The notes below the pieces were generated by a model. That model did no database searches and was not told the origin of the DNA. It worked only from the letters and a program-made list of their open reading frames with translations. 64,000 nt of DNA from Terasakiella brassicae (GTDB lineage Bacteria > Pseudomonadota > Alphaproteobacteria > Rhodospirillales > Terasakiellaceae): assembly GCF_014641495.1 (NCBI RefSeq), contig NZ_BMHV01000010.1, forward strand, positions 62,001 to 126,000, read 5' to 3'. Positions 10,114 to 14,863 of the stretch are shown here, one piece after another. Position 1 is the stretch's first letter. Every line of letters begins with the position of its first letter. Both the position numbers and the translations under genes were made by a program.

Positions 10114-11211
10114 ATGCTTGCCTATATCATTCGACGCTTATTGCTGATCGTTCCGACACTCTTCGGCATTATGGTGTTGAACTTCGTCATCATTCAGGCT
10201 GCCCCCGGCGGACCGGTCGAACAAATGCTGGCACAAATTCAGGGCGAGGCGGTTGATGCCACCGCACGTGTTTCCGGTACAGACGGTGGTGAGGTCAAAG
10301 GCGCTGCCCCCAGCATTGGCACCAATGCAAATTCCCAATATCGCGGGGCACAAGGGGTCCCCCCTGAATTAATCGCCCAATTGGAAAAACAATTCGGTTT
10401 TGACAAGCCCGCCCATGAGCGTTTTTTCCAGATGCTTGGCAACTATGTCCGTTTTGATTTCGGCAACAGCTTTTACAGCGATCAAAGCGTTGTCGATCTG
10501 GTCTTGCAAAAAATGCCGGTTTCCATCTCATTAGGGATCTGGTCAACCCTGCTGATTTATCTCATCTCTATCCCCCTAGGCATTAAAAAGGCCGTGCGCG
10601 ATGGATCGCGTTTCGATATCTGGACAAGCGGGGCTGTTATTCTGGGCAATGCGATACCCAGCTTTCTCTTTGCGATTTTCCTGATGGTGGTCTTTGCCGG
10701 TGGGCGTTATCTCGACTGGTTCCCCATTCGTGGCCTGACATCGGATAATTGGGCAGAACTGTCCACATGGCGACAAATCACAGACTATTTCTGGCATATT
10801 GCCCTGCCTGTCTTTTCCATGGTGGTCGGTGGGTTTGCAAGCCTCACCATGTTGACCAAAAATTCCTTTCTGGAAGAGATTAACAAACAATATGTCGTCA
10901 CCGCACGCGCCAAAGGCTTAACGGAAAACCGTGTGCTTTATAAACATGTGTTTCGCAATGCCATGCTGATTGTCATTGCGGGTTTCCCCGCGACTTTTAT
11001 CGGGGTGTTTTTTACCGGATCCTTGTTGACCGAAATTATTTTCTCCCTCGACGGGCTTGGCCTTTTGGGATTTGAAGCCGCCATTAACCGTGATTATCCG
11101 GTGGTCTTCGGCACACTTTATTTCTTCACGCTGGTGGGGTTGGTGCTGAACCTGATCGGAGATATCATGTATCACATCGTTGATCCCCGCGTTGATTTCG
11201 AGGCGAGGTAA
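10114..11211 (+). CDS. yejB: Peptide ABC transporter permease YejB
   Basis: The 365-residue inner-membrane protein has about six helices. It starts with the conserved [19 protein letters not shown] and has the permease-ATPase contact loop (EAA motif) around [16 protein letters not shown] near residue 270. A polar insertion at about 50-85 ([16 protein letters not shown]) is typical of YejB and separates it from DppB or OppB. YejABEF imports microcin C-like and other peptides and helps resistance to antimicrobial peptides in several Proteobacteria. No yejA (binding protein) is next to it here. It is divergent from alkA with 142 bp between. Confidence 0.93.
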
Positions 11212-11215
11212 CAAG

Positions 11216-12241
11216 ATGATGAGCCCGATCAATCAACGCCGCTGGCAGAATTTTAAAACCAACAAACGGGGCTATTGGTCCCTGTGGATTTTTCTGTTCT
11301 TGTTTGTCTTGTCCCTGTTTGCCGAACTGATTGCCAACGACAAACCACTTTTGATTTCCTATGAAGGGGGGCTTTACACCCCGTTCTTAAAGGAATATCC
11401 CGAAACCACATTCGGCGGTTTTTTTGAAACCGAGGCCGAATACCGTGATCCCGAAGTTCAAGCCCTGATCACGGACACCGGGGGATGGATTATTTGGCCG
11501 ATGGTGCGCTACAGTTACGACAGTATCAATTATGCCCTGACCGTACCCACCCCCGCCCCACCCAGTGCCGACAACTGGTTAGGTACGGATGATCAGGGAC
11601 GTGATGTGGTGGCGCGAATTATTTATGGATTTCGGATTTCGGTCCTGTTTGGATTGGGTTTAACCATCCTGAGTTCCATCATCGGTATTGCCGCCGGGGC
11701 CATTCAGGGATATTTCGCAGGCCTTATTGATCTGATCGGCCAACGGGTGATTGAGGTCTGGTCCGGCCTGCCCACCCTGTATCTATTGATCATCCTTGCC
11801 AGTTTTGTCGAACCGAACGTCTGGTGGCTATTGGGAATTATGCTGCTGTTTTCATGGATTGCGCTTGTCTCGCTGGTGCGTGCCGAATTTCTGCGCGCGC
11901 GTAATTTTGATTTTGTCCGCGCCGCCAAGGCCTTGGGCGTCAGCGACCACACCATCATCATCCGCCACGTTCTCCCCAATGCGATGGTGGCGACCTTTAC
12001 CTTTTTACCCTTTATCCTGAACGGGTCCATCACAACCCTGACCGCGTTGGATTTCCTTGGATTTGGCCTGCCCCCGGGCAGTGCCTCACTGGGTGAACTG
12101 CTGAATCAGGGTAAAAATAATCTGCAAGCCCCGTGGCTGGGGCTAAGTGCGTTTTTCGTTCTCTCCCTCATGCTGTCTTTGCTGATTTTTATTGGCGAAG
12201 CTGTGCGAGATGCCTTTGACCCAAGGAAGACATTTCAATGA
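11216..12241 (+). CDS. yejE: Peptide ABC transporter permease YejE
   Basis: The second permease (341 residues) has an N-terminal helix, the long YejE-type periplasmic loop (ISYEGGLYTPFLKEYPETTFGG) and five C-terminal helices with the EAA loop RAAKALGVSDHTIIIRHVLP. The frame is open to 11180, inside yejB, but the ATG at 11216 follows GAGG (11205-11208) and gives the usual MSPINQRRWQNFKTNKRG start. It begins 5 bp after the yejB stop and its stop overlaps the yejF ATG (ATGA, 12238-12241), so the complex is made from one message. Confidence 0.94.
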   Translation: MMSPINQRRWQNFKTNKRGYWSLWIFLFLFVLSLFAELIANDKPLLISYEGGLYTPFLKEYPETTFGGFFETEAEYRDPEVQALITDTGGWIIWPMVRYSYDSINYALTVPTPAPPSADNWLGTDDQGRDVVARIIYGFRISVLFGLGLTILSSIIGIAAGAIQGYFAGLIDLIGQRVIEVWSGLPTLYLLIILASFVEPNVWWLLGIMLLFSWIALVSLVRAEFLRARNFDFVRAAKALGVSDHTIIIRHVLPNAMVATFTFLPFILNGSITTLTALDFLGFGLPPGSASLGELLNQGKNNLQAPWLGLSAFFVLSLMLSLLIFIGEAVRDAFDPRKTFQ

Positions 12242-13857
12242 GCGCCCCTTTACTCGACATTAAAGACCTGCATGTTTGCTTTGGCGATGATGTGGCCGTG
12301 CGCGGTGTTTCCTTCCATCTGGAAAGGGGGGAAACACTGGCTTTGGTTGGGGAATCCGGGTCCGGTAAATCCGTCAGCGCCTTATCCATCCTGCAACTGC
12401 TGCCATATCCCCACGCCCACCACCCAAAAGGATCCATCAAACTGGATGGTGAGGAATTACTAGGCTGCAAAGAACACACCATTCGCGGCATTCGCGGCAA
12501 CCGTATTGCCATGATTTTTCAGGAACCCTTAACCTCGCTTAATCCGCTGCATTCCATTGAACGCCAGATTTCCGAAGTTCTCTTTGTCCATAAAATGATG
12601 ACCAAGCGCCAGGCACGCGCACGGGTCATTGAACTGCTAAAACTCGTCGGTCTGGAAAATGCCACCAGCGAAGACCGTCTCAAGGCCCTGCCGCATCAAT
12701 TCAGCGGGGGGCAACAACAACGCATTATGATCGCAATGGCCTTGGCGAACGAACCGGACATCCTGATCGCAGATGAACCGACAACCGCCCTTGATGTCAC
12801 CGTTCAGGCACAAATTTTAAAACTGCTCAAAGAATTGCAGGCCAAGCTGGGCATGGCCATTTTAATGATCACCCATGATCTTGGCATCGTGCGCCATGTC
12901 GCTGATCGGGTCTGTGTGATGAATGACGGTGAAATCGTTGAAAGTGGCGATTGTCGCCAAATTTTCGACGCCCCCACACACCCGTACACCCAAAAACTTC
13001 TGGCAGCTGAACCGACAGGGAAACCGGCTGATACCATTAATGATAAAGAAATTTTACGCGTTGAAGATTTCAAGGTCTGGTATCCCATTAAACGCGGCAT
13101 CATCAAACGCACCGTTGATCATGTGAAAGCCGTCGACGGTATTACGCTTACGGTTCGACAAGGTGAAACTCTTGGCGTTGTCGGGGAATCAGGATCCGGC
13201 AAATCCACATTGGGCCGTGCCATTTTGCGCCTTGAAGACAGCGATGGCACCTTAGTTTTTGACAACCACAATCTACAAACCCTCCCGGCGAAAGACCTGC
13301 GGCCCTTACGCAAGGAAATGCAAATGGTTTTTCAGGACCCGTTCGGGTCCATGTCCCCGCGCATGAGCGTCCAGCAAATTGTCGAAGAAGGCCTGCTTGT
13401 TCACGGATTAGGCGGCACCCGTGCAGAACGCCGTGAACTCGTCGGGGATGTGCTGGAGGAAGTCGGCCTGAAACGCAGTGCACAGGACCGTTACCCCCAT
13501 GAATTCAGCGGGGGGCAACGCCAGCGTATCGCCATTGCCCGCGCCATCGTCTTGCGCCCGCGCCTGATCATTCTGGATGAACCCACCAGCGCACTGGATA
13601 TGTCGGTTCAGGCGCAGATTGTCGAATTGTTACGCAACCTGCAAGCCAAATATAATCTGGCTTATATCTTTATCAGCCATGACCTGAAAGTCGTGCGTGC
13701 CATGAGCCATAAAGTCCTTGTCATGCAAAACGGCCAAGTTGTCGAACAAGGTTTGCGCGACGATATTTTCGATGCACCGCAAACGCCTTATACCAAGGCC
13801 TTAATGGCGGCAGCCCTTGAAAACAAGGCTGATGAAAACGGCGTGGTTTCCCTATAA
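12238..13857 (+). CDS. yejF: Peptide ABC transporter ATP-binding protein YejF (two ATPase domains)
   Basis: This 539-residue protein carries both nucleotide-binding domains of the importer. Domain 1 has Walker A GESGSGKS at 38-45, signature FSGGQ at 155-159 and Walker B LIADE at 176-180. Domain 2 has GESGSGKS at 316-323 and a second FSGGQ near 422 with LILDEPTSALD after it. Each half ends with the oligopeptide-transporter extension (HPYTQKLLAAEP and TPYTKALMAAAL). All catalytic motifs look intact. It would pair with YejB-YejE. The downstream rubredoxin-like gene follows after 82 bp on the same strand. Confidence 0.95.
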   Translation: MSAPLLDIKDLHVCFGDDVAVRGVSFHLERGETLALVGESGSGKSVSALSILQLLPYPHAHHPKGSIKLDGEELLGCKEHTIRGIRGNRIAMIFQEPLTSLNPLHSIERQISEVLFVHKMMTKRQARARVIELLKLVGLENATSEDRLKALPHQFSGGQQQRIMIAMALANEPDILIADEPTTALDVTVQAQILKLLKELQAKLGMAILMITHDLGIVRHVADRVCVMNDGEIVESGDCRQIFDAPTHPYTQKLLAAEPTGKPADTINDKEILRVEDFKVWYPIKRGIIKRTVDHVKAVDGITLTVRQGETLGVVGESGSGKSTLGRAILRLEDSDGTLVFDNHNLQTLPAKDLRPLRKEMQMVFQDPFGSMSPRMSVQQIVEEGLLVHGLGGTRAERRELVGDVLEEVGLKRSAQDRYPHEFSGGQRQRIAIARAIVLRPRLIILDEPTSALDMSVQAQIVELLRNLQAKYNLAYIFISHDLKVVRAMSHKVLVMQNGQVVEQGLRDDIFDAPQTPYTKALMAAALENKADENGVVSL

Positions 13858-13939
13858 ACGAAAATCATATTTCCTTCATAAAAGAGTCTTTGAAACCGCG
13901 TATTTTTCGACTCTCAAAATCAAAAAACGGGAGGTTCAT

Positions 13940-14176
13940 ATGTGGTTATATCGCGGAAACATTCAAAAGGCTGTTGCTATGATGCCAATGGCAGGGTTTG
14001 GTGCTATTAAGGCGTTTGAGCCGCAACGCTGGATTTGCAGTTGTTCAAAATACGTTTACGACCCGGCCAAAATGGATGGGATCGCCTTTGAAGAACTGGG
14101 TAAAAAATGGAAATGCCCTTCTTGCGGTGCCAAGAAAAAAGCCTTTAGCAAGACCAACAAATATCCCTTGTCCTGA
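13940..14176 (+). CDS. Rubredoxin-like protein with CxC instead of CxxC in the first knuckle
   Basis: The 78-residue protein has a 30-residue N-terminal extension and then a rubredoxin core: WICSCSKYVYDP (31-42), AFEELGKKWKCPSCGAKKKAF (49-69). In ordinary rubredoxin four cysteines in two CxxCG loops bind one iron. Here the second loop is normal (Cys59, Cys62), but aligning on YVYDP puts Ser36 where the second ligand should be and Cys35 one place earlier (Cys33-x-Cys35). Iron binding may be altered or lost. The frame is open to 13817, but the ATG at 13940 has a strong GGGAGG at 13929-13934. It lies 9 bp before the FRG gene, suggesting an operon. Confidence 0.8.
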   Translation: MWLYRGNIQKAVAMMPMAGFGAIKAFEPQRWICSCSKYVYDPAKMDGIAFEELGKKWKCPSCGAKKKAFSKTNKYPLS

Positions 14177-14185
14177 TCCCTTAAA

Positions 14186-14863
14186 ATGCGCGAAATTCAG
14201 GTTGAAAACTTTGGGGATTACCATAATGCCCTGTCGCAATATCAATGGTTTGAACGCTGGATGTTTCGCGGACAATGCGAAGCCGACTGGCCCCTGATCC
14301 CCAAGATCGGGCGCAAAAAATATAAACACGCGTTAAAATACGAACGCGCCTTTTTTCGTGCCTGGAAACGTCAGGCTGTGGCCTATTTTTCCCGTGATAA
14401 TATTGATGATTGGGATTATCTCGCGCTGGCCCAGCATCACGGATTGGCCACCCGATTGCTGGACTGGACCCGCAATCCACTGGTGGCCCTGTTCTTTGCG
14501 GTACATGGACAATATGACACCGATGGTGTGGTTTATGTCTTCAAACCCAAACATCATTATGTGCAGGATGAATCCCCTCACCCCTTAAAAGCAGAAAAGA
14601 CAGGTTATTTTACCCCACATTCTTTTTCTGAACGCATTGTGCAACAACGCGGCGTTTTCACCGTTCACGGCAAACCCGATAAAAAACTAAATGAAAAAGA
14701 CGGGGAACTGCATCAATACATCATCCCCAAACAGATCAAACAACATCTGTCCAAAGATTTGAATAATTACGGCATCAACATGATGACCCTGTTCCCCGGT
14801 CTGGACGGCCTGTCTGATTTTATGAATTGGCAGGCTGCCATTCTACATGAATTTGAGGAATGA
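14186..14863 (+). CDS. FRG domain-containing protein
   Basis: The 225-residue cytoplasmic protein shows the FRG domain: MFRGQCEADWPLIPKIGR at 26-43, with the name-giving F-R-G at 27-29, and the core QHHGLATRLLDWTRNPLVAL at 83-102. FRG proteins are widespread and mostly unstudied; they turn up in mobile and defence-rich regions, and some relatives have been proposed to act on nucleotides or as toxins. No second domain is visible. It starts 9 bp after the rubredoxin-like gene and overlaps nothing; the convergent acetyltransferase gene ends 7 bp away. Its function here is unknown. Confidence 0.85.
   Translation: MREIQVENFGDYHNALSQYQWFERWMFRGQCEADWPLIPKIGRKKYKHALKYERAFFRAWKRQAVAYFSRDNIDDWDYLALAQHHGLATRLLDWTRNPLVALFFAVHGQYDTDGVVYVFKPKHHYVQDESPHPLKAEKTGYFTPHSFSERIVQQRGVFTVHGKPDKKLNEKDGELHQYIIPKQIKQHLSKDLNNYGINMMTLFPGLDGLSDFMNWQAAILHEFEE

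What the first reader, a model, noticed from the sequence alone, without database searches (positions are those of the whole stretch)
13940..14176. Rubredoxin-like protein with a shifted cysteine (CxC instead of CxxC)
Seen: WICSCSKYVYDP ... KCPSCGAKK. Alignment on YVYDP puts Ser at the second iron-ligand position and Cys one residue earlier; the second knuckle is intact. A 30-residue extension precedes the core. Inference: altered iron site (for example three Cys plus Ser, or a strained CxC), zinc binding, or loss of redox function.
Basis: partly seen in the sequence, partly recalled or inferred. Interest (0 to 1): 0.52.

Follow-up and report, generated by a model that had tools for sequence, protein, structure and literature searches.

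The report
Genus-specific rubredoxin with CxC metal knuckle
A small protein of the marine bacterial genus Terasakiella is built like the simple electron carrier rubredoxin, but one of its four metal-binding cysteines sits one position early and its overall charge is positive instead of negative; its close relatives share both oddities, so this looks like a real, selected variant rather than an error.

Summary
Window 13940-14176 (+) encodes 78 aa with WICSCSKYVYDP...KCPSCG, a Pfam rubredoxin above cut-off. The CxC is no sequencing error: it is invariant in the 4 Terasakiella genomes that carry the gene, of 6 held. All other rubredoxin matches listed were read and are CxxC or CX4C. A four-Cys mononuclear site (Fe or Zn), held by CxC plus CPxC, fits best. 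Two further points emerged. (1) The core is cationic (net +4/+5) against -10 to +1 in 63 other distinct cores. (2) A conserved upstream element contains a 14-mer found 6 times in 6 genomes: before the four CxC genes, and twice before a standalone arsenate-reductase-like gene. It resembles the genus's Pho boxes, weakly by score. Most likely a genus-restricted rubredoxin variant acting as a small redox carrier for an anionic partner, perhaps under PhoB-like control. Metal, partner and regulator are unproven; zinc is a serious rival.

The parts
13940..14176 (+). CDS of the 78-aa CxC rubredoxin-like protein
   Evidence: PF00301 above cut-off; 4 orthologues aligned
13940..14026 (+). N-terminal extension, residues 1-29, low confidence in the structure models
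   Evidence: conserved, less than the core; 10-residue mean pLDDT 41-57
14036..14044 (+). first knuckle C33-S34-C35 (CxC)
14114..14128 (+). second knuckle C59-P-S-C62-G63 (canonical CPxCG)
13862..13890 (+). conserved upstream element: three half-sites in 11-bp phase, AAATCAT-ATTT-CCTTCAT-AAAA-GAGTCTT, Pho-box-like
13929..13934 (+). ribosome-binding site GGGAGG
   Evidence: direct reading
10114..13857 (+). peptide-type ABC transporter genes (two permeases and a double ATPase, YejBEF-like; the names yejB and yejE are recalled). The YejF-like gene lies just upstream in all four genomes with the CxC gene
   Evidence: BPD_transp_1 twice; YejF model 722.7 bits, below its cut-off of 834

Best explanation
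This is a Terasakiella-specific variant of rubredoxin. Shown: the rubredoxin sequence family, aromatic core residues and predicted fold are kept; the first metal knuckle is CxC instead of CxxC in every orthologue found; the net charge of the core has turned from acidic to basic; a conserved upstream element is shared with an arsenate-reductase-like gene in two genomes. Inferred: the four cysteines (33, 35, 59, 62) bind one metal ion, the CxC pair chelating it through a distorted knuckle; the metal is iron and the protein is a small one-electron carrier with a shifted potential; its lysine-rich face around the second knuckle docks on an anionic partner (a protein or a membrane surface) rather than on the usual rubredoxin partners; the gene is induced by PhoB or a PhoB-like regulator.
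For: CxC invariant in 4 of 4 orthologues, canonical ligand position not conserved as Ser. PF00301 matched by 4 of 4; over the cut-off in 4 of 4 in the genome search, one of them only together with its neighbours in the frame (22.6, then 26.6 bits). Y38, Y40, D41, P42, F50, L53, W57, F69 of the rubredoxin core are present. AF2: 10-residue mean pLDDT 73-84 over residues 31-70. Best PDB matches are the D. desulfuricans rubredoxin entries 6nw1 and 6rxn: Foldseek E 4.3e-4 and 1.3e-3, TMt 0.90 and 0.92; VIA Z 7.2 for 6rxn, rmsd 0.5 A over 45 residues. Net charge +4/+5 in 4 of 4 CxC cores against -10 to +1 in 63 other distinct cores. CxC cores form one group with 100/99 support on a tree made without the knuckle. 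Upstream element in 4 of 4; exact 14-mer 6 times in 6 genomes, 4 at this gene, 2 at an arsC-like gene. In one genome (G003) a thioredoxin-reductase-like flavoprotein gene lies next to it, a conceivable electron donor.
Against: No metal, spectrum or potential can be measured here; iron is assumed from the family. The Gly that follows the first knuckle in canonical rubredoxin is K/G/S/A. No coordinates of the models were available, so the CxC geometry was not checked. The charge reversal would suit a nucleic-acid-binding zinc protein as well. No redox gene lies beside it in all four genomes (by eye; the flavoprotein is next to it in G003 only). Two of 6 Terasakiella genomes lack it, so it is dispensable. 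The Pho-box scores of its upstream sites (4.4-13.4) are well below those of the pstS/phoR training sites (17.7-27.1).
Confidence: 0.5

Rival explanations
1. A structural zinc protein of rubredoxin fold: CxC plus CPxC hold Zn2+, there is no redox role, and the basic face binds nucleic acid, ribosome or another anionic surface.
For: Basic net charge conserved 4 of 4; weak Pfam hits to zinc fingers (zf-Sec23_Sec24 E 0.006, below its cut-off; 2 of 4 members); no redox neighbour in all four genomes (by eye).
Against: Rubredoxin aromatic core and predicted fold kept, PF00301 clearly the best family; the zinc-finger hits are below their cut-offs.
Confidence: 0.33
2. The reader's site with three Cys plus Ser36 as the fourth ligand, C35 being free or redox-active.
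For: The gap-free register puts Ser36 at the canonical ligand position in this species. The list holds a solved Cys-to-Ser rubredoxin mutant (1be7, C42S, by its title).
Against: The position is S, G, S, N in the four orthologues while C35 is invariant.
Confidence: 0.05
3. On origin, compatible with the best explanation: descent from the CX4C (type II) rubredoxin-like proteins of the same order by loss of three knuckle residues, rather than from ordinary CxxC rubredoxin by moving a Cys.
For: CX4C proteins have the same Cys-x-x-Tyr distance after the second Cys as the CxC proteins, and L009 shares QRWIC with them.
Against: The tree does not resolve it (39 columns, weak forks). HMM scores lean to the CxxC set (tails 36.8-47.6 bits against 31.7-40.3), though that set is larger (51 against 12 cores). 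The CX4C proteins often start with what looks like an export signal (by eye), the CxC protein does not. The short loop is that of CxxC proteins such as 6rxn.
Confidence: 0.25
4. A decaying, non-functional rubredoxin remnant.
For: Absent from 2 of 6 genomes of the genus; a canonical ligand position is lost.
Against: Purifying selection (dN 0.17-0.27; dS over 1.4 or saturated), invariant CxC and CPxC, conserved start, upstream element and position after the yejF-like gene.
Confidence: 0.05

Closest known systems
Short-loop rubredoxin of Desulfovibrio desulfuricans (PDB 6rxn)
   Same: Same core length and short loop; gap-free superposition, rmsd 0.5 A over 45 residues; 39.5 bits, best of the phmmer list.
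   Different: 6rxn has CxxCG and more acidic residues in the aligned stretch (alignment); here CxC, a lysine-rich core and a conserved extension of 29 residues.
CX4C (type II) rubredoxins: Desulfovibrio Rd-2 is recalled; CX4C proteins were read here, e.g. in L009, L010, L013, L014, L020, L022, L024
   Same: A rubredoxin-like protein with altered spacing of the first knuckle only, and Cys-x-x-Tyr after it.
   Different: The spacing is longer, not shorter; the 12 CX4C cores counted are acidic (net -10 to -2); several have a likely export signal (by eye).
Desulforedoxin (recalled)
   Same: A natural rubredoxin-type site with a shortened knuckle.
   Different: Recalled: an adjacent CC pair in the second knuckle of a 36-residue dimer; here the first knuckle is CxC in a longer chain.

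Membership tests
Rubredoxin (PF00301) | Score above the curated family cut-off | tested here: met
   32.9 bits against 23 for P0001; 4 of 4 orthologues counted as over the cut-off, one only with its neighbours in the frame
Rubredoxin (PF00301) | First knuckle CxxC-G | tested here: not met
   CxC in 4 of 4
Rubredoxin (PF00301) | Second knuckle CPxCG | tested here: met
   CPSCG, CPCCG, CPCCG, CPKCG
Rubredoxin (PF00301) | Aromatic core YxYDP...F..L...W.CP...F and fold | tested here: met
   (the first Tyr is Phe in two orthologues, Asp is Asn in one)
Rubredoxin (PF00301) | One iron bound by four cysteinates, one-electron redox | not testable with these tools
   needs purified protein
NCBIfam NF045768 rubredoxin (equivalog) | Score over the cut-off of 90 | tested here: not met
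   37.1 bits
CX4C type II rubredoxin | CX4C first knuckle | tested here: not met
   CxC
CX4C type II rubredoxin | Common descent with the CX4C group | tested here: inconclusive
   unresolved tree
Desulforedoxin | CC in the second knuckle (definition recalled) | tested here: not met
   CPSCG
Pho regulon member | Pho box upstream | tested here: inconclusive
   half-sites in 11-bp phase; 2, 4, 1 and 0 of 118 control upstream regions score as high, but scores are below true pstS/phoR sites; no consensus match within 3 mismatches at this gene

The most novel reading that the evidence does not exclude
A natural mononuclear Fe(Cys)4 protein in which one ligand pair is a CxC chelate on a rubredoxin scaffold, with an inverted, cationic docking face, forming with a standalone arsenate-reductase-like protein a two-gene set under one PhoB-like operator in Terasakiella: a redox carrier re-tasked for phosphate limitation or arsenate entry.
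Probability: 0.25. Interest if true: 0.6.

Novelty: new variant of a known kind. Interest (0 to 1): 0.4.

Why it matters
Rubredoxin is the simplest iron-sulfur protein and a standard model for how a protein tunes a single Fe(Cys)4 site (recalled). A natural, selected CxC knuckle would let the effect of knuckle geometry on potential and metal choice be tested on an evolved rather than an engineered protein. I saw no report of such a knuckle in the searches, which cover open-licence papers only, and I did not read the sequences of all solved rubredoxins. The charge reversal says that partners probably changed too.

Tried and rejected
Sequencing or assembly error: rejected, four assemblies agree. 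Three Cys plus Ser: disfavoured by the orthologues. Upstream TTG start giving 119 aa: rejected, the MW start is conserved and the stretch before it differs in length and reading frame context while a DNA block is conserved. Phage or plasmid origin: tblastn found only distant rubredoxins or unannotated places (15 plasmid and 2 phage records, none covering 80% of the query); viral contigs: of 116 stretches with a pattern none encodes a relative; PHROGs 0 families. Sigma-70-type promoter and terminator scan of 13700-14300: none found. Consensus CTGTCAT-N4-CTGTCAT in the window, up to 3 mismatches: 6 hits, 4.3 expected, none at this gene, which tells against a consensus Pho box in this species. 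PstS by TIGR00975: 0 of 6 genomes; the pst genes were then found through PhoU, full-length over the cut-off in 5 of 6 genomes, so the sixth (G003) gave no training site. Tree to place the CxC group: unresolved (66 rows of 67 cores, one having been overwritten by a second core of the same locus). The two ArsC-type proteins of the window's own genome (L123, L124) are ArsR-ArsC fusions (HTH_5 plus LMWPc) without the element, so the shared operator is shown for 2 genomes only.

Literature, all searches: 'rubredoxin + CX4C' 0 papers; 'rubredoxin + Terasakiella' 1, passages of PMC6431628 read, nothing on this protein; 'rubredoxin + desulforedoxin + cysteine + spacing' 0; 'rubredoxin + cys-x4-cys' 1, passages of PMC11138216 read, the motif there belongs to ferredoxins; 'rubredoxin + cysteine ligand + serine + mutant' 9, listing only; 'rubredoxin-like + CXC motif' 0; 'new family of rubredoxins' 1, listing only; charge-related terms, 17 papers with at least 4 of 5 terms, 12 listed, listing only; Pho regulon terms 3, passages of PMC4796936 and PMC11208175 read for what a Pho box is; 'rubredoxin + phosphate starvation + PhoB' 6 papers, 5 listed, listing only. 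The library lacks most subscription journals.

Full report
OBSERVATION. A GGGAGG ribosome-binding site ends five bases before the ATG. Pfam places the protein in Rubredoxin PF00301 (E 6.7e-8, 32.9 bits, cut-off 23). It is the only PF00301 match over the cut-off in its genome. NCBIfam's rubredoxin equivalog model gives only 37.1 of the required 90 bits.

CONSERVATION. Of 6 genomes held in the genus, 4 carry the gene. The other three proteins are 60-65% identical to the window's; C33, C35, C59, C62 and the run AFEELGKKWKCP are invariant. The position that canonical rubredoxin uses for its second Cys is S, G, S, N. Two orthologues have an additional Cys in the second knuckle (CPCCG). Nei-Gojobori pN is 0.15-0.23 against pS 0.64-0.96. 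The gene follows the YejF-like transporter gene in all four, but in two of them an oppositely directed ORF lies between, so an operon with it is not general. In the two genomes without the gene, tblastn of 11.5 kb around yejF found no remnant.

IS CxC UNIQUE? Searches took 100 relatives, 297 genomes of the order, 385 of the class and 398 of the phylum; these sets overlap, and class and phylum were cut at E 1e-5. First 77 loci were read, repeats of one place included: 4 CxC, all Terasakiella, 13 CX4C, the rest CxxC (four of these were unclassified by the script and are CxxC by eye). So every match listed in the four searches was read, and only the Terasakiella ones are CxC. A scan of genome contigs found 3 loci, all of them the same orthologues; its bait peptides did not include the first knuckle. 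The orthologous family is thus confined to this genus in what was searched; that no other CxC rubredoxin exists is not shown.

STRUCTURE. AlphaFold2 with 4 and with 28 sequences gives mean pLDDT of only 64 and 67 for the whole chain, but 10-residue means of 73-84 over residues 31-70; the extension is uncertain. The best structural matches are rubredoxins, first that of D. desulfuricans; just one Foldseek match has E under 0.001. In the second look all 45 residues of 6rxn align at 0.5 A without a gap, Z 7.2. The second model leaned on 24 ordinary rubredoxins in its alignment, which favours the canonical backbone. No coordinates were given, so sulfur positions were not checked.

CHARGE. The CxC cores have net charge +4 or +5 and computed pI 9.0-9.2. 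The 63 other distinct cores caught by the same script have -10 to +1; four more loci that its pattern missed have -8 to -4. Lysines crowd around the second knuckle (GKKWKCPxCGAKKK), near the side on which rubredoxins usually meet their partners (recalled). I take this as the strongest sign that the partner, and perhaps the job, has changed. Charge was counted on sequence, not on a surface.

ORIGIN. On the tail of the domain the four CxC proteins form one group (100/99) on a long branch, but its neighbour is unresolved (39 columns). After its second Cys the CxC protein has the spacing of CX4C proteins; its loop length is that of short-loop CxxC proteins. HMM scores lean to CxxC. I leave the origin open.

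UPSTREAM ELEMENT. An alignment of the upstream regions shows a conserved block TCA[TC]-N7-TCAT-V-AAAGAGTCT; the 29-base site ends 49-58 bases before the start codon. In the window the 25-base pattern, with up to 3 mismatches allowed, occurs once, here, with none (0.10 expected in shuffles). The exact 14-mer TCATVAAAGAGTCT occurs 6 times in the 6 genomes: once before each of the four CxC genes, and before a standalone arsC-like gene in G004 and G003; the reversed control pattern occurs twice. The arsC-like protein is a low-molecular-weight phosphatase fold member (PF01451) that scores below NCBIfam's cut-offs for arsenate reductase (60.9 of 174.3 bits), so 'arsenate reductase' is a resemblance, not an assignment. 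Its close relatives (75-100% identity) are in just those two genomes; the window's genome has two at 53-54%, both ArsR-ArsC fusions without the element. Of 25 one-mismatch places 24 were read; none has TCA[TC] in phase 11 bases before, one has TAAT. Of the 6 exact places five have TCA[TC] and the sixth TAAC. The element looks like a Pho box: in the same genus pstS and phoR carry 11-base-spaced half-sites such as CTGTCAT-GAAA-CTGTAAC and TCGTCAT-AAAA-GCGTATC. A weight matrix from ten pstS/phoR sites of five genomes ranks the four CxC upstream regions near the top of 118 control regions (2, 4, 1 and 0 controls score as high), but their scores (6.7, 4.4, 9.2, 13.4) fall short of the training sites (17.7-27.1 when left out), and shuffles of the regions reach them in 64, 194, 34 and 4 of 2000. 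The motif was first seen by eye in these four sequences; the matrix was made without them. Control by PhoB is plausible, not shown; the sharing of one operator by the two gene families is better supported.

MECHANISM. Best reading: a mononuclear four-Cys site made by a CxC and a CPxC knuckle on a rubredoxin scaffold, most likely iron and redox-active, docking through a basic face. Recalled precedents for short chelates on one metal are the CC pair of desulforedoxin and the CxC of mitoNEET; a Cys-to-Ser rubredoxin has been solved (1be7, by its title), so the scaffold tolerates a changed ligand. A pyridine-nucleotide flavoprotein, thioredoxin-reductase-like but below the cut-offs, lies next to the gene in G003 only; it is a conceivable donor, not an argument. 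The zinc reading is nearly as likely. Nothing here measures metal or redox.

VERDICT. Observation confirmed; interpretation half right; a real new variant within a known family, of moderate interest, made somewhat more interesting by the charge reversal and the shared operator.

Noticed in passing
window 14186-14863 (+): An FRG-domain protein (PF08867, E 1.2e-27) starts 9 bases after the stop codon of the CxC gene in this genome; judged by eye from ORF starts it is not next to the gene in the other three.
   Followed up: partly
L009, L010, L013, L014, L020, L022, L024/L092, L161, L164, L165, L169, L172, L173: CX4C rubredoxin-like proteins in the order; several reading frames start with what looks like a twin-arginine or other export signal (by eye). 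G004 carries both a CX4C and a CxC protein.
   Followed up: partly
L119 1574-2047 (+); L120, - strand, ending with the gene read: Standalone arsC-like protein (PF01451) near a likely cobO gene, with the same upstream element as the CxC gene.
   Followed up: partly
L123 and L124, 1111-1986 (+), the window's own genome: Two ArsR-ArsC fusion proteins (HTH_5 plus LMWPc), each with a likely transporter gene downstream (by eye).
   Followed up: partly
L028 12810-13826 (-), genome G003: A pyridine-nucleotide flavoprotein (PF07992; thioredoxin-reductase-like, below NCBIfam cut-offs) convergent with the CxC gene, in this genome only.
   Followed up: partly
L090, L091 (G002, G005): Another rubredoxin with a CxxCW knuckle (CKICWHVYDP), resembling hydrogenase-linked HoxR/HupI by recall.
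   Followed up: no
L110-L114, right after phoB: An EamA-type transporter and a fatty-acid-hydroxylase-family membrane protein (both scanned in L110 only) and a third gene follow phoB in all five genomes read.
   Followed up: partly
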